Part shown: one piece after another, positions 233 to 63,876 of the stretch
Numbering within the stretch: the stretch's first letter is position 1
Layout of the letters: each line of letters starts with the position of its first letter
Assembly: GCA_030525685.1 (NCBI GenBank)
Contig: JAUNEG010000005.1
Span: 1 to 64,000 of the forward strand
DNA: 64,000 bases
Direction: 5' to 3'
DNA from: Atopobiaceae bacterium
Lineage (GTDB): Bacteria; Actinomycetota; Coriobacteriia; Coriobacteriales; Atopobiaceae
Program-made: the position numbers and the translations under genes
The notes under the pieces: generated by a model
The model's input: the letters and a program-made list of their open reading frames with translations, nothing else
What the model was told of the DNA's origin: nothing
The model's database searches: none

Positions 233-311
233 CGAGAAGAACGACGTGCCGAGGTTCTTCTCGCCGCGCGCGCAGGAAAACGCGACCCGTCCCCGCCCTT
301 CTCGCCATGCG

Positions 312-420
312 CGTTAAGAATCCCGGCGCGTCCCCCTTGAAACGATACTTCAGAGGGGGACGCGCCGGGATTTCTAACCCGGACACGCTTCCACACGGGG
401 ACGCAAGCGGATTCCTAACC
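312..420. repeat. REP-like repeat cluster, three copies (GGTTA ... GTCCCC family)
   Basis: Three copies of a 24-bp unit sit in the gap between the convergent PFL and murB genes. The unit is a GTTA head, about eight variable bases, then CCGGCGCGTCCCC or GCTTGCGTCCCC. Copies are at 312-335 (plus), 356-379 (minus) and 397-420 (minus). The first two form a strong hairpin that could terminate both flanking genes. The two same-direction copies start 41 bp apart. Three more copies lie at 49686-49794. Confidence 0.75.
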
Positions 421-433
421 CGCGCCCGCAGCC

Positions 434-12856: not shown

Positions 12857-13129
12857 GTCCCGGAAACAGCGATGTTCTCCGCCTTGGCGAAAGGGGCGTC
12901 CGAGAATTGGCGACCTTCTCCGCCTGGCAGGTCTTCTCGTCCCGAAAAGAGGGAGGTTCTCCGCCTAGGTGGCCCCCGACGCGGAGAAGGTCGCCGTTTC
13001 CGGGACGTGCGCACCACGCAGCCGGAGAAGGTCGCCATTTCCGGGACGAGAAGGACGCACGCTCGGGGAACATCGCCGATTCCGGGACAGCCGTGGATCT
13101 CGAGCGGAGAAACCCCTCGTTTTGCGGAC
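12857..13129. repeat. Seven-unit 41-bp-pitch repeat array, copy 1
   Basis: Seven 26-bp units, each close to GCGGAGAAGGTCGCC followed by ATTTCCGGGAC, fill the region upstream of malic enzyme. Minus-oriented units start at 12857, 12898 and 12939; plus-oriented units start at 12981, 13022, 13063 and 13104. Same-direction units are exactly 41 bp apart and the halves face each other across a 16-bp centre. Units are imperfect dyads (CGGAGAA and TTTCCGG). 12687-12856 contains the malic enzyme leader and nothing else I can identify. A second array with identical layout is at 44987-45259. Confidence 0.9.
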
Positions 13130-13166: not shown

Positions 13167-13430
13167 CTACGCCAGCGCGATGCCGCCCAGCCAGCCCCAG
13201 CGCGGCTCGCACGCCGCGCAGAGGTCCTCCCCCATGGCCGGCGTGACCAGCGCGCACTCCACCAGCCGTCGCTGCAGCGTCCCGGCGCCGAGAAGCGTCT
13301 GCGGCTCGTGCCCCGCCGGAACCGGGCGCCAGGCCGGCTGCCCGAAGGTCGTGGTCGCGCCGTCGGCGGCGAGAAGCCCGCGCGCCCGCAGCGCCGCCAG
13401 CACCCGCGACCGCATGCCCTTCTCGCCCAT
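13167..13430 (-). CDS. Small protein of unknown function, 87 residues
   Basis: I do not recognise this protein. The frame is supported by almost exclusive G/C at third codon positions, by an ATG at 13430 preceded by GGAGGG, and by its place in an otherwise non-coding gap. The sequence has an arginine-rich N-terminus, a central RPVPAGHEPQTLLGAGTLQR and a C-terminal LCAACEPRWGWLGG with a CxxC pair that might bind metal. There is no signal peptide or membrane segment. It is divergent from galE, and the repeat array lies just downstream. Confidence 0.55.
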   Translation of the reverse strand: MGEKGMRSRVLAALRARGLLAADGATTTFGQPAWRPVPAGHEPQTLLGAGTLQRRLVECALVTPAMGEDLCAACEPRWGWLGGIALA

Positions 13431-13569
13431 GGCGCTCCCTCCGTCACGAAGACGGTACCAGAACGCCCGGACTCAACCGTCCGCCGCGAGCCCGCGCGCG
13501 CCCGTGCCTCGCCGACGTATACTAAAAAGTGGACGAAAGCATCTGTGAGCAACGGGGAAAGGACCCACC

Positions 13570-18006: not shown

Positions 18007-18081
18007 AGGGGTATCGTCCAATGGTTAGGACAGTGGTTTTTGGTGCCATCAATGTGGGTTCGAATCCTACTACCCCTGCCA
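18007..18081 (+). tRNA. tRNA-Gln (anticodon TTG)
   Basis: The cloverleaf is clear. The acceptor stem is AGGGGTA with TACCCCT. The D arm is GTCC with GGAC. The anticodon arm GTGGT/GCCAT has loop TTTTGGT (anticodon TTG, reading CAA). The T arm is GTGGG-TTCGAAT-CCTAC and a CCA end is encoded. Confidence 0.96.
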
Positions 18082-32376: not shown

Positions 32377-32555
32377 GGTGGTTCCTTTCCCTTTGTGGTA
32401 ATCCCCTTCCGCGCGACGCAACCGGAGGGGACCCATTCCCCTCCCCCTTGCAACCTAATGCGAGAAAGTTACGCGCACGTGGGCAGAATACCCCGGGACG
32501 AGAAGAACCGCGAGCTGATACCATCGTGGGAAACACCGCCGTAACGGGTGGGCGT

Positions 32556-44986: not shown

Positions 44987-45259
44987 GTCCCGGAATCGCC
45001 GGGCTTCTCGCTTAGCGAGAAGAGCGCGTCCCGAAATCGCCGGCCTTCTCCGCCTGATGGGATTTCTCGTCCCAGAAAACGGGAGGTTCTCCGTTCAAAC
45101 AGCACCTGTCGCGGGGAACTCCGCCAATTCTGGGACGGGAAGGGCGCTTGGCCGGAGAACCCCGCCAATTCCTAGAAGCCCTTCCCGCCCGGGCGGAGAA
45201 GGATGCCGTTTTCAGGACGCCGCTTGCGCCCAACCGGGGAATCTCCCACTTTTTAGGAC
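44987..45259. repeat. Seven-unit 41-bp-pitch repeat array, copy 2
   Basis: The layout is the same as at 12857-13129. Minus-oriented units start at 44987, 45028 and 45069; plus-oriented units start at 45111, 45152, 45193 and 45234. All same-direction steps are 41 bp and the centre step is 42 bp, as in copy 1. Units vary around GCGGAGAA then GCC and TTCCGGGAC. Spacers are also related between the copies (for example CTGATGGGATTTCTC against CTGGCAGGTCTTCTC). It lies between rpsI and glmM. Confidence 0.9.
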
Positions 45260-45331: not shown

Positions 45332-45727
<396 letters not shown>

Positions 45728-49601: not shown

Positions 49602-49685
49602 GAGCCTGACGCGCGAGGCGGGGCGGGGCGGCCCGCGCCCACGTCCTTCGCGCCCGTCCTTCTCGCCCGCCATCCCCCTCGCGCG

Positions 49686-49794
49686 GGTTAGCTTTACCGG
49701 CGCGTCCCCGTCTGGCGCGTGACTTGGGTTAGATCTACCGGCGCGTCCCCCTCCTGATCGCCGAATTGAGGGGGACGCGCCGGTGGTTTTAACC
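49686..49794. repeat. REP-like repeat cluster (GGTTA ... GTCCCC family), three copies
   Basis: Copies lie at 49686-49709 and 49727-49750 (plus, 41 bp apart) and 49771-49794 (minus). Each reads GGTTA, eight variable bases, then CCGGCGCGTCCCC. The last two form a hairpin. The cluster lies between convergent fruK and patatin genes. It is the same family as at 312-420, with mirror-image organisation. Confidence 0.8.
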
Positions 49795-49831
49795 CGACGC
49801 CCGGCGGGGGCGTGTCAGGCGAGAAGGGCCG

Positions 49832-50740
49832 CTAGCCGAGAAACGCCTCGATCTCCGCGATCCGCTCGGTCGCCTGCCGACGCCCGGCGACGTAGAGGGA
49901 GAGCAGCGACTCGCCGTCGCGCGTGGACGACCCCACGGCGACCGGCTCCTCCGGGGCGATCACGAGGCAGGTGCCAGCCTCCTCGAGCTCCCAGAGCCGC
50001 TCGCGCTGGGCGTTGTAGCGCTCGGCGCGGGTGCGCAGCGCCTCCAGGTAGTAGGGGTAGCGGTCGTAGCGGTGCGAGCGCAGCGCGATCTGCTCGCTCG
50101 AGCCCGCCTGCTCGCGGACGTAGCCCCGGTCCTGCGTGAGCACCACGAGCGCCCGCTCGGCCGCCGGCCGCCCCGCGACCTCGGGCGCACCCGGCAGGCC
50201 CAGCGCGGCCGCGTAGGGGATCGAGTCCGTGGTGCCGCCGTCGAGGTAGCGATGCCCGCCTACCTCCACGAGACGGCTCACCGTGGGAAGCGAGGCCGAG
50301 GCGCGCACGCGGTCGATGTCGTCGGGGAAGCTTCGCACCGGCAGGTAGGCCGGCGTGCCGAACGTCACGTCCGAGACGACGACCCACAGGGGCGTCCCGC
50401 TCTCGTTGAACGTCGCCACGTCGCAGGGGTCCAGACGGTTCTGGACCTCGTCGTACATGAAGTCGGCGCCGGCGATGTCCCCGGTCGTGGCGAACGACCA
50501 CAGCGACATGAAGCGGCGGTCGTCGCGGAAGGCGAGGATGTCGCGCATGGTGCGCCCGATCTGGCGCGAGCGGAAGTTCGACGCGTTCACCGCGCCGGCC
50601 GAGACGCCCCAGATGCCGGAGAAGGCGTAGATGCCGCGCTCCTGCAGCACGTCGAGCACGCCTGCCGTGAACATCCCGCGAAAGCCGCCGCCCTCCAGCA
50701 CGAGCGCGGGCGCGACGACACCGTTCCTCTCGTCAGACAT
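49832..50740 (-). CDS. Patatin-like phospholipase
   Basis: The 302-residue protein has the oxyanion-hole motif GGGFRGMF, the nucleophile elbow GVSAG (GxSxG) and the second catalytic residue in YLDGG (DG). It lacks a signal peptide and membrane segments, so it is probably a cytosolic lipid acyl hydrolase of the RssA/YjjU kind. ATG at 50740 follows GGAGG. Its start overlaps the end of the serine recombinase reading frame by eight bases, and the mobile element begins about 20 bp upstream of it, so its native promoter has probably been separated from it. Confidence 0.9.
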   Translation of the reverse strand: MSDERNGVVAPALVLEGGGFRGMFTAGVLDVLQERGIYAFSGIWGVSAGAVNASNFRSRQIGRTMRDILAFRDDRRFMSLWSFATTGDIAGADFMYDEVQNRLDPCDVATFNESGTPLWVVVSDVTFGTPAYLPVRSFPDDIDRVRASASLPTVSRLVEVGGHRYLDGGTTDSIPYAAALGLPGAPEVAGRPAAERALVVLTQDRGYVREQAGSSEQIALRSHRYDRYPYYLEALRTRAERYNAQRERLWELEEAGTCLVIAPEEPVAVGSSTRDGESLLSLYVAGRRQATERIAEIEAFLG

Positions 50741-52367
50741 GAGACCTCCCAACGAAAAAATGACAGCGGCCGCGGGCCCTGGGGGCCGACGGCCGCGAAG
50801 CGTGCATGGTGGAGCCAAAGGGGAAGCAATCGAACTTGACGGCTTCCCCTCTATCAAAAGGGTTGCCGCCCTCCTCGAAGTACACTTCCCAAGGCACCTC
50901 GCCATGGTCGCCCGAGTACCACGACGTTATCATAAGCCCGGTCTCGCTGACGTATATCTTATCGACGAAGTATTCCAGCACCTGCCCGCGCACCTCCGGG
51001 TCGGAGAAGTCCGCGTGCAGGAACTTCTCGAAGTACGCCCGGATGCTGTGCTCGTCCTCGCACAGGGCGGCGCGGACGTTCTCCGTCTCGATGGCCTCGC
51101 CGAGTGCGCGCTTCTGCTCTTCGAGCTGCACCAGGCGCTCCGTGACCGTCTCGCTCACGACGCCCGACTCGATGACCTTGACGAGGTTCGCCAGGCTCTT
51201 CTCGACGTCCCGGCGCTTCGCCTCCAGCCCGTCCAGATACCCCGTGTCGCGGTAGTTCTTCTCGTAGTACGCGGCGGCGTCCACGGCTAGAGACATCAGG
51301 TTCTCGGAATCGTCCAGGATGTCCTCCAGAATCTGCAGGGCCACGTCCTCAATCACGTCCTTGCGCAGCTTCTTCATGTCGCACTCGTGGCGGCGCTGGG
51401 CGGCGCAATAGTAGTAGTAATACGTGCGCCCCGTCTTGCTCGTGCCGGACACGCCCTGCATCGGGCTTCCGCATTTGGCGCAGCAGAGCTTGCCCGTCAG
51501 CCAGTAGCGCGGCGCCTCGTTCTCGTCCATACCGCGCGCCCGCTGGGAGCCTCGCCGCTTGTTCTCGGCGAACTTCCGCTGCACGGCCTCGAAGGTCGCC
51601 ACGTCCACCAGCGCTGGCATGCCGCCATCGACCACGATGTCGCCGTGGCGGTACTCGCCGATGTAGGCGCGGTTCTGGAGCATCTTGTTCATCGTCTTCA
51701 CGCCGAACCTCGCGCCCCGCGTGGTGCGCAGCCCCTGGGCGTTCAGCTCGTCGCAGATGTCCTGCATCGCCTTGCCCGCCGCGTACTCCGCGAACATCCG
51801 CTGCACGAACGGCGCGGTGTCCGGGTCAACGACGTACTTCTTGGTCGCCTTGTCCACGCCGTAGCCGAACAGCTTGTGCCCGTTGTACAGGGCGTGCTGG
51901 GCGTTGTAGTCCATGCCGCGCTGGATGTTCTGCGAGAGCTGGCGGCTGTAATACTCCGCCATGGACTCCATCAGGCCCTCGATGAGCACGCCCTCCGGCC
52001 CGTCGGTGGGGATGTTCTCCGCCAGCAGGCGTATCTCGCAGCCCGCCTCTCGTATGGTGCGCTTGGCCATCGCCAGCACGTACTTGTCACGCCCGAGACG
52101 GTCGGTCTTCCACATGATGAGGACGCGGGGACGGATTTTTGCGACCTCCGACAGCATCAGCTGGAACCCCGGTCGGTTCTCGGTGGTGCCGGATATGGCC
52201 GCATCCTCGTACTCCTTCACGATGCGGAACCCGTGGGCGTCCGCCCAGTCGTGCGCAAGCTCGCGCTGCTGGTCGATGCTCGCCTCGTTCTGCGAGTGGG
52301 ACGAGAACCGATAGTACGCGATGGCGAGGTTGTTGTCGTTCAGCTCGGCTTTCTTGCGTCTCGCCAT
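50733..52367 (-). CDS. Large serine recombinase (integrase)
   Basis: The 544-residue protein has an N-terminal resolvase domain with the catalytic serine at about residue 22 (YYRFSSHSQ), then IDQQRELAHDWADAHG and the LIMWKTDRLGRD motif. A recombinase domain (FGYGVDKATKKYVVDP, GLRTTRGARFG), a zinc ribbon (CCAKCGSPM with YYYCAAQRRHEC) and a coiled coil follow. This architecture belongs to phage/ICE integrases. It is at the left end of the element and its last codons overlap patatin. The start abuts the RHH gene stop. Confidence 0.95.
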   Translation of the reverse strand: MARRKKAELNDNNLAIAYYRFSSHSQNEASIDQQRELAHDWADAHGFRIVKEYEDAAISGTTENRPGFQLMLSEVAKIRPRVLIMWKTDRLGRDKYVLAMAKRTIREAGCEIRLLAENIPTDGPEGVLIEGLMESMAEYYSRQLSQNIQRGMDYNAQHALYNGHKLFGYGVDKATKKYVVDPDTAPFVQRMFAEYAAGKAMQDICDELNAQGLRTTRGARFGVKTMNKMLQNRAYIGEYRHGDIVVDGGMPALVDVATFEAVQRKFAENKRRGSQRARGMDENEAPRYWLTGKLCCAKCGSPMQGVSGTSKTGRTYYYYYCAAQRRHECDMKKLRKDVIEDVALQILEDILDDSENLMSLAVDAAAYYEKNYRDTGYLDGLEAKRRDVEKSLANLVKVIESGVVSETVTERLVQLEEQKRALGEAIETENVRAALCEDEHSIRAYFEKFLHADFSDPEVRGQVLEYFVDKIYVSETGLMITSWYSGDHGEVPWEVYFEEGGNPFDRGEAVKFDCFPFGSTMHASRPSAPRARGRCHFFVGRSHV

Positions 52368-63504: not shown

Positions 63505-63876
63505 TGGTGGAGGTGCGGAGAATCGAACTCCGGTCCAAAGCGAACCCCTGACAGGTGTCTCCAGGCTCAGTGGCCAATTGGGTCTCGGACGCCGCGCACC
63601 TGGTCACCCGCGCTTGGCGTCCCAGCCGGTTCGGTCTTTGCGCGCGGCATACCGGCCACGTCCGCGCGCGCATCTCCCTAGAATGACGCCGCCCCGGGAA
63701 CGGGAGCGATCCCCGGTTTGACGCGCTGGTTAGTTAAGACTAAGCAGCGAGAGCCAGCTGAGGCTCGAAAGAGTTGTTCTCGTCAATTCAATTTGACGGT
63801 ACCCCTGTTTAACGTGGCGAGGAGACCACGACCTGCTGCCCATCTCAGGCCCACCCTGTCGAAACCAGTCACCCCC
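63505..63876 (-). ncRNA. ssrA: tmRNA
   Basis: tmRNA rescues stalled ribosomes and tags their products. On the minus strand the 5' end reads GGGGGTGACTGGTTTCGACA (63876 downwards), matching the tRNA-like start, and the 3' end has GTTCGATTCTCCGCACCTCC then ACCA. The acceptor arms CACCTCC and GGGGGTG pair. The tag reading frame encodes DENNSFEPQLALAA and stop, ending in the expected LAA degradation signal. The resume codon is probably GAC. A TTGACA lies about 38 bp upstream (63914-63919), but no good -10 is visible; 63877-64000 holds only this leader. Confidence 0.95.

What the first reader, a model, noticed from the sequence alone, without database searches (positions are those of the whole stretch)
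12857..13129. Seven-unit intergenic array with an exact 41-bp pitch and mirrored halves
Three minus-oriented units (12857, 12898, 12939) and four plus-oriented units (12981, 13022, 13063, 13104) share a 26-bp imperfect dyad (CGGAGAA ... TTTCCGGGAC). Every same-direction step is exactly 41 bp, about four helical turns, so the sites would lie on one face of the DNA. The pitch is not a multiple of three, so it is not a coding repeat. This looks like a phased protein-binding array (architectural protein, partition-like or replication-related site) or a structured mobile repeat, and I know of no description of it.
Basis: partly seen in the sequence, partly recalled or inferred. Interest (0 to 1): 0.85.

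Follow-up and report, generated by a model that had tools for sequence, protein, structure and literature searches.

The report
Helically phased mirrored intergenic repeat arrays
In the gut-type bacterium Thermophilibacter, some 25 spots just after genes carry a mirror-image row of six or seven copies of a 25-letter DNA word spaced by whole turns of the DNA helix; evolution keeps the words and the spacing but not the letters between, so they look like docking sites for an unknown protein that lines up along one face of the DNA.

Summary
The window array has seven 25-bp units (three minus, four plus). The same unit forms 52 arrays in two related Thermophilibacter genomes. Every cleanly resolved array is divergent (minus units, then plus units). 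Measured between dyad centres (GAA-N9-TTC), neighbours lie 41 bp apart, including the central mirrored pair. The exceptions fall at 20, 30-31, 40, 42, 51-52, 61, 72 and 82 bp, i.e. whole helical turns. Between orthologous arrays, key unit positions differ at 1-2% of sites, linkers at 13-32%. Array length changes only by whole 41-bp units or single bases. Mirrored units do not co-vary, so an RNA or cruciform hairpin is not what is selected. A second family with another 25-bp sequence shares the 41-bp pitch. Other Thermophilibacter species, and single examples in related genera, carry further unit families at about 30, 31, 40 or 41 bp. Arrays hug stop codons and are gained or swapped between species. 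Best reading: dispersed, helically phased protein-binding arrays under selection, probably architectural or boundary elements at gene ends. Binding protein and function are unknown. I found no published description.

The parts
12857..13129 (.). Array A1: seven 25-bp family-A units, layout --- ++++, steps 41,41,43,41,41,41, between malic enzyme (minus) and an 87-aa ORF (minus)
12857..12881 (-). unit 1, CGGAGAACATCGCTGTTTCCGGGAC
   Evidence: 35.7 bits
12898..12922 (-). unit 2
   Evidence: 34.9 bits
12939..12963 (-). unit 3 (inner left)
   Evidence: 27.3 bits
12982..13006 (+). unit 4 (inner right); the array has one 41-bp unit more on this side than its T. gallinarum ortholog
13023..13047 (+). 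unit 5
   Evidence: 38.6 bits
13064..13088 (+). unit 6
   Evidence: 37.1 bits
13105..13129 (+). unit 7, weak
   Evidence: 12.6 bits
44987..45259 (.). Array A2: seven family-A units, --- ++++, steps 41,41,43,41,41,41, between glmM (minus) and rpsI-rplM (minus)
311..421 (.). Array B1: family-B units (GGGGACGMGCCGGTATTTCTAACCC), minus 311-335, plus 356-380 and 397-421; steps 45, 41
49685..49795 (.). Array B2: family-B units, minus 49685 and 49726, plus 49771; steps 41, 45; sits where T. gallinarum has a family-A array

Best explanation
Each 25-bp unit is a sequence-specific binding site for a protein, probably a dimer on the GAA-N9-TTC dyad with an extra contact to the outer GGAC. Neighbouring sites sit four turns (sometimes two, three or five) apart, so bound proteins stack on one face of the DNA and contact each other. 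The mirror layout gives a two-fold symmetric nucleoprotein block that looks the same from either side. Shown here: site conservation, fixed spacing, helical lattice, absence of hairpin co-variation, position at gene 3' ends, gain and exchange between species. Inferred: that a protein binds, its cooperativity, and the role, which I think most likely is architectural (a boundary between transcription units or a DNA-bending/condensing anchor), not a transcription terminator in its own right.
For: 52 arrays, same-direction steps 41 x190 and 31 x21, and no array with the reverse (convergent) layout. Dyad-centre distances 20, 30-31, 40-42, 51-52, 61, 72, 82; concentration of the non-41 distances R = 0.955 at a period of 10.4-10.5 bp. 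Orthologous divergence 1.4% (A/T) and 2.0% (G/C) at core positions against 31.6% and 13.2% in linkers; variable unit positions serve as an internal control. Array indels are only 41, 82 or 1 bp, flanks any size. Total units 5-8 with left and right counts anticorrelated (r -0.48, p 0.005). Stop codon median 35 bp away, start codon 250. No difference between the half transcribed first and second (p 0.54). Family B has the same pitch and its own fixed centre of 45.
Against: No binding protein identified and no experiment. Common descent could preserve some spacing, although linkers have diverged to 35% identity against 30% expected. Presence/absence between sister species shows that at least some arrays are dispensable. 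Units were located by a PWM built from the same genomes, a mild bias in favour of unit conservation. Gene calls and context rest on a simple ORF/GC3 heuristic.
Confidence: 0.6

Rival explanations
1. Miniature mobile elements whose ends carry several transposase-binding sites (as in Tn7 or Mu ends), fused head to head; the geometry is that of a transpososome.
For: Insertion at otherwise empty sites: G000 C42:65938 lies between two convergent stop codons that are nearly abutting in T. gallinarum and G014; slots hold different families in different species. Several families per genome. Intergenic, near 3' ends, like REPs/MITEs.
Against: Fixed orthologous copies keep core positions while linkers drift, which mobility alone does not explain. 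Units vary in number with no fixed outer terminus; no consistent target duplication in three empty/filled comparisons; no half-arrays flanking a transposase seen; absent from the virus scan by exact pattern and without real matches in the phage and plasmid collections.
Confidence: 0.2
2. Bidirectional protein roadblock that terminates transcription from both sides.
For: 3'-end position in tandem and convergent contexts; the symmetric layout presents the same polarity to polymerase from either side.
Against: Array-adjacent gene ends do not lack intrinsic terminators (41% vs 28% of other ends, p 0.12); rpsI at 45332 has a strong terminator-like hairpin before array A2.
Confidence: 0.12
3. REP/BIME-like RNA or DNA hairpin element.
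For: Predicted RNA folds better than shuffles (z -6.7 and -4.5); position downstream of genes as for REPs (PMC3733652).
Against: Mirrored partners pair no better than shuffled partners (p 0.95 and 0.72); no excess of joint substitutions (13% vs 15%); spacing follows the B-DNA turn; no palindromic stem of 8-9 bp with a 4-5 nt loop in the unit.
Confidence: 0.06

Closest known systems
REP / BIME elements, including CGTC-tagged REPs (PMC3733652)
   Same: 20-40 bp intergenic units, often inverted, downstream of coding regions, species-specific families
   Different: No true palindromic stem, no co-variation, fixed 41-bp pitch on a helical lattice, 5-8 units always divergent, linkers of fixed length
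Iteron or operator arrays (plasmid origins, phased regulator sites)
   Same: Tandem, helically phased sites of about 20-25 bp (own knowledge)
   Different: Dozens of mirrored copies scattered at gene 3' ends, not at origins or promoters; no adjacent binder gene found
MITEs and multi-site transposon ends (Tn7, Mu)
   Same: Inverted sets of transposase-size sites; presence/absence between relatives
   Different: In-place purifying selection on sites; variable unit number; no fixed termini or consistent target duplication
CRISPR arrays
   Same: Regular repeats with unique linkers
   Different: 16- or 6-bp linkers, mirrored orientation, degenerate repeats, many loci

Membership tests
REP/BIME (incl. 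CGTC REP) | Palindromic stem of 8-9 bp with short loop and CGTC/GTAG tag | tested here: not met
   Unit dyad is GAA-N9-TTC with imperfect flanks; definition
REP/BIME (incl. CGTC REP) | Paired units able to form a maintained hairpin | tested here: not met
REP/BIME (incl. CGTC REP) | Intergenic, downstream of coding regions, many copies | tested here: met
MITE / transposon ends | Insertion at an empty site | tested here: met
   (C42:65938, C6:89101)
MITE / transposon ends | Fixed termini and constant target-site duplication | tested here: inconclusive
   Three filled/empty comparisons: an 8-bp CGGGACGG direct repeat at one, GAGC at another, none clear at the third
MITE / transposon ends | Cognate transposase | not tested
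   No autonomous copy was met among fetched loci; whole genomes were not available as files
Phased protein-binding array | Spacing in whole helical turns, conserved while linker sequence drifts | tested here: met
Phased protein-binding array | A protein binds the unit | not testable with these tools
   no binding assay or regulon data available
CRISPR | Near-identical direct repeats in one orientation with spacers of similar length to the repeat | tested here: not met
Known structured RNA (Rfam) | Match to a family | tested here: not met

The most novel reading that the evidence does not exclude
Coriobacteriia carry a new class of chromosomal element: mirrored arrays of about 25-bp sites locked to the helical repeat (about 20/31/41/52 bp), in many sequence families that share one geometry, inserted and exchanged at gene 3' ends, and bound by a family of rapidly re-specialised DNA-binding proteins that build a symmetric nucleoprotein particle.
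Probability: 0.4. Interest if true: 0.88.

Novelty: categorically new. Interest (0 to 1): 0.76.

Why it matters
Dispersed bacterial repeats are mostly explained as hairpins or transposon relics. Here comparative genomics alone shows protein-site-like constraint and a helical lattice across dozens of loci, and the same geometry recurs with unrelated unit sequences. That points to an undescribed DNA-organising or insulating system in a large group of gut bacteria, with a direct handle (a 41-bp probe) to find the protein.

Tried and rejected
RNA hairpin or cruciform: rejected by partner shuffling and by the lack of joint substitutions, despite low folding energy. Rho/RNA-side function: no asymmetry between the half transcribed first and second. 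Replacement of intrinsic terminators: not depleted at array-adjacent ends. Coding repeat: pitch not a multiple of three, intergenic. CGTC-tagged REP: stem and loop criteria fail. Phage or plasmid origin: no virus contig by exact pattern, no real match among phages or plasmids. Literature searches gave no description. An ECF-sigma promoter reading (GGAAC ... GTC) was considered from memory and dropped: the -10-like half does not fit.

Full report
OBSERVATION. The window contains seven copies of a 25-bp unit at 12857-13129, three on the minus strand followed by four on the plus strand, with same-direction steps of exactly 41 and a central step of 43. A second array of identical layout lies at 44987-45259. 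Even three sites at <=3 mismatches are never reached in 100 shuffles of the window. A PWM over 323 units carries about 31 bits; nearly invariant positions are GAA (5-7), C (11), TT (17-18) and GGAC (22-25).

GENOME SCALE. The host genome (1.93 Mb, 49 contigs) has 99 sites at <=2 mismatches to the unit pattern with none in the reversed control. PWM scanning of fetched stretches gives 24 arrays in the host and 28 in a sister species, which names as Thermophilibacter gallinarum DSM 107455 (family Atopobiaceae). Cleanly resolved arrays all run minus units, then plus units; the reverse layout is never seen (a few arrays show an extra overlapping weak hit). Same-direction steps: 41 x190, 31 x21, with single 40, 42 and 82; nearly all the 31 steps are next to the centre. 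Centre steps: 43 x33, 22 x7, and a few 32, 33, 42, 44, 53, 54, 74, 84. In the class-wide sample of 149 genomes the unit's sequence is abundant only in these two species; G028, G009, G014 and G030 of the same genus hold a few related arrays.

HELICAL LATTICE. Taking the midpoint of GAA-N9-TTC as the centre of each unit, the mirrored central pair is also 41 bp apart. Over both genomes the distances are 20 (7), 30 (2), 31 (20), 40 (3), 41 (216), 42 (2), 51 (1), 52 (1), 61 (1), 72 (3), 82 (4): all close to multiples of about 10.3 bp. The 61, 72 and 82 values probably span a unit that fell below threshold. Many of the 31s and 20s are probably related by descent, so the number of independent spacing changes is smaller than the counts, but several distinct layouts all fall on the lattice.

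SELECTION. For orthologous arrays between the two species, units differ at 7.6% of sites and linkers at 18.5%. Corrected for base, core unit positions differ at 1.4% (A/T) and 2.0% (G/C), variable unit positions at 24.9% and 7.2%, linkers at 31.6% and 13.2%, intergenic flanks at 16.4% and 9.0%. Indels inside arrays are 41, 82 or 1 bp; flanks show many other sizes. The window array itself has one 41-bp unit more than its T. gallinarum ortholog. Between different arrays linkers are 35% identical against 30% expected from composition, so spacing has outlived linker sequence.

NOT A HAIRPIN. The predicted RNA is stable, which any mirrored repeat family gives. But mirrored partners pair no better than partners shuffled among arrays (17.41 vs 17.77 Watson-Crick pairs, p 0.95 in the host; 17.82 vs 17.93, p 0.72 in T. 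gallinarum), and substitutions in a left unit are not matched in its mirrored right unit (9 of 69) more than in others (30 of 203). In tandem-gene contexts the half transcribed first and the half transcribed second score alike (p 0.54). This points to double-stranded DNA as the functional form.

CONTEXT. Facing stop codons are a median 35 bp away (32 of 55 within 50 bp), facing starts a median 250 bp (4 of 49). In the window, A2 follows rpsI (Pfam S9) and its terminator-like hairpin, and A1 follows an 87-aa ORF upstream of malic enzyme. Intrinsic terminators are not depleted at array-adjacent ends (16 of 39 vs 40 of 144, p 0.12), so I do not favour a terminator role. Totals per array are 5-8 units, and left and right counts compensate (r -0.48; variance below shuffled, p 0.005), which suggests the whole array acts as one assembly.

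TURNOVER. About 17-18 arrays are shared at orthologous sites. Others differ. C42:65938 is an insertion between convergent stops that are nearly abutting in T. gallinarum and G014; C6:89101 is absent from T. gallinarum, G028, G014 and G030; C26:77041 stands where T. gallinarum, G028 and G030 have another inverted repeat family. Where T. gallinarum has a family-A array at C2:500953 the window has a family-B array (49685-49795), and at C1:374235 the host has a family with units 40 bp apart. Arrays are thus gained and exchanged as wholes.

SAME GEOMETRY, OTHER SEQUENCES. Family B (GGGGACGMGCCGGTATTTCTAACCC) forms 16 arrays in the two genomes, mirrored in the same sense: 25 of 25 same-direction steps are 41 and 14 of 15 centres are 45; one array at a contig start shows only its plus half. 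A motif-free scan of intergenic DNA of ten other Thermophilibacter species finds lag 40 and 41 at 8 and 5 loci against a mean of 1.2 per other lag. Mirrored examples with their own units are seen in G014, G016, G030 and G008, in other Atopobiaceae (G072 at 30 bp, G112 at 40 bp) and once in another family of the order (G047: 41 and 30 bp). Outside the genus these are single examples and no lag excess is proven. Near-perfect inverted repeats of several other families also abound; some may be RAYT-type REPs, so not every inverted repeat here belongs to this class.

INTERPRETATION. What it works like: a phased array of protein sites forming a symmetric block on one DNA face. What it belongs to: no family whose defining features I could test is met in full. 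The function is inferred from position and symmetry; architectural or boundary roles fit best, mobile multi-site ends are the main rival. Novelty rests on searches of the held paper library only, which misses many subscription journals. I rate it 'categorically new' for geometry plus selection evidence, with about 0.4 probability that the full class-wide reading holds.

Noticed in passing
window intergenic DNA and L201-L254: GGCGAGAAG/CTTCTCGCC is the most over-represented intergenic 8-mer family in the window (CTTCTCGC 16 times in 10.8 kb) and in most other Thermophilibacter and some Atopobiaceae genomes; it resembles the left half of family-A units. Could be an uptake, Chi- or KOPS-like motif.
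   Followed up: partly
window 13169-13432 (minus): The 87-aa ORF next to array A1 is an internally deleted version of a 176-aa protein in T. gallinarum; neither has a Pfam match.
   Followed up: partly
L150 (G028:C1 about 1256793-1260090): G028's only detected family-A-like arrays are two, 3 kb apart, flanking ABC-transporter-like genes; a similar spot carries arrays in the host (C6:60203, 64808) and T. gallinarum (C2:54376, 59024). Possible transfer of a cassette with its arrays.
   Followed up: no
window 2992 and 20541 (minus): TGGGGACTGTCCCCRATTYACRGAC, a palindromic REP-like repeat, scores weakly with the family-A PWM.
   Followed up: no
L255 after the match: Where T. gallinarum has the array C2:9166, the host has a GGGGACAG-type inverted repeat followed by what looks like a REP-associated transposase gene (not confirmed by a profile search).
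   Followed up: no
L143 (G000:C26:77041): Two neighbouring 41-bp units share an identical linker (gctggcggccgatgcc): a recent whole-unit duplication.
   Followed up: no
window 50733-52367 (minus): ORF whose N-terminus reads like a large serine recombinase, about 1 kb from array B2 (not confirmed by a profile search).
   Followed up: no
window 63505-63876, 32405-32478, 1432-1576, 18007-18078: Rfam matches: tmRNA, Corio-PBP RNA, FMN riboswitch, tRNA.
   Followed up: no
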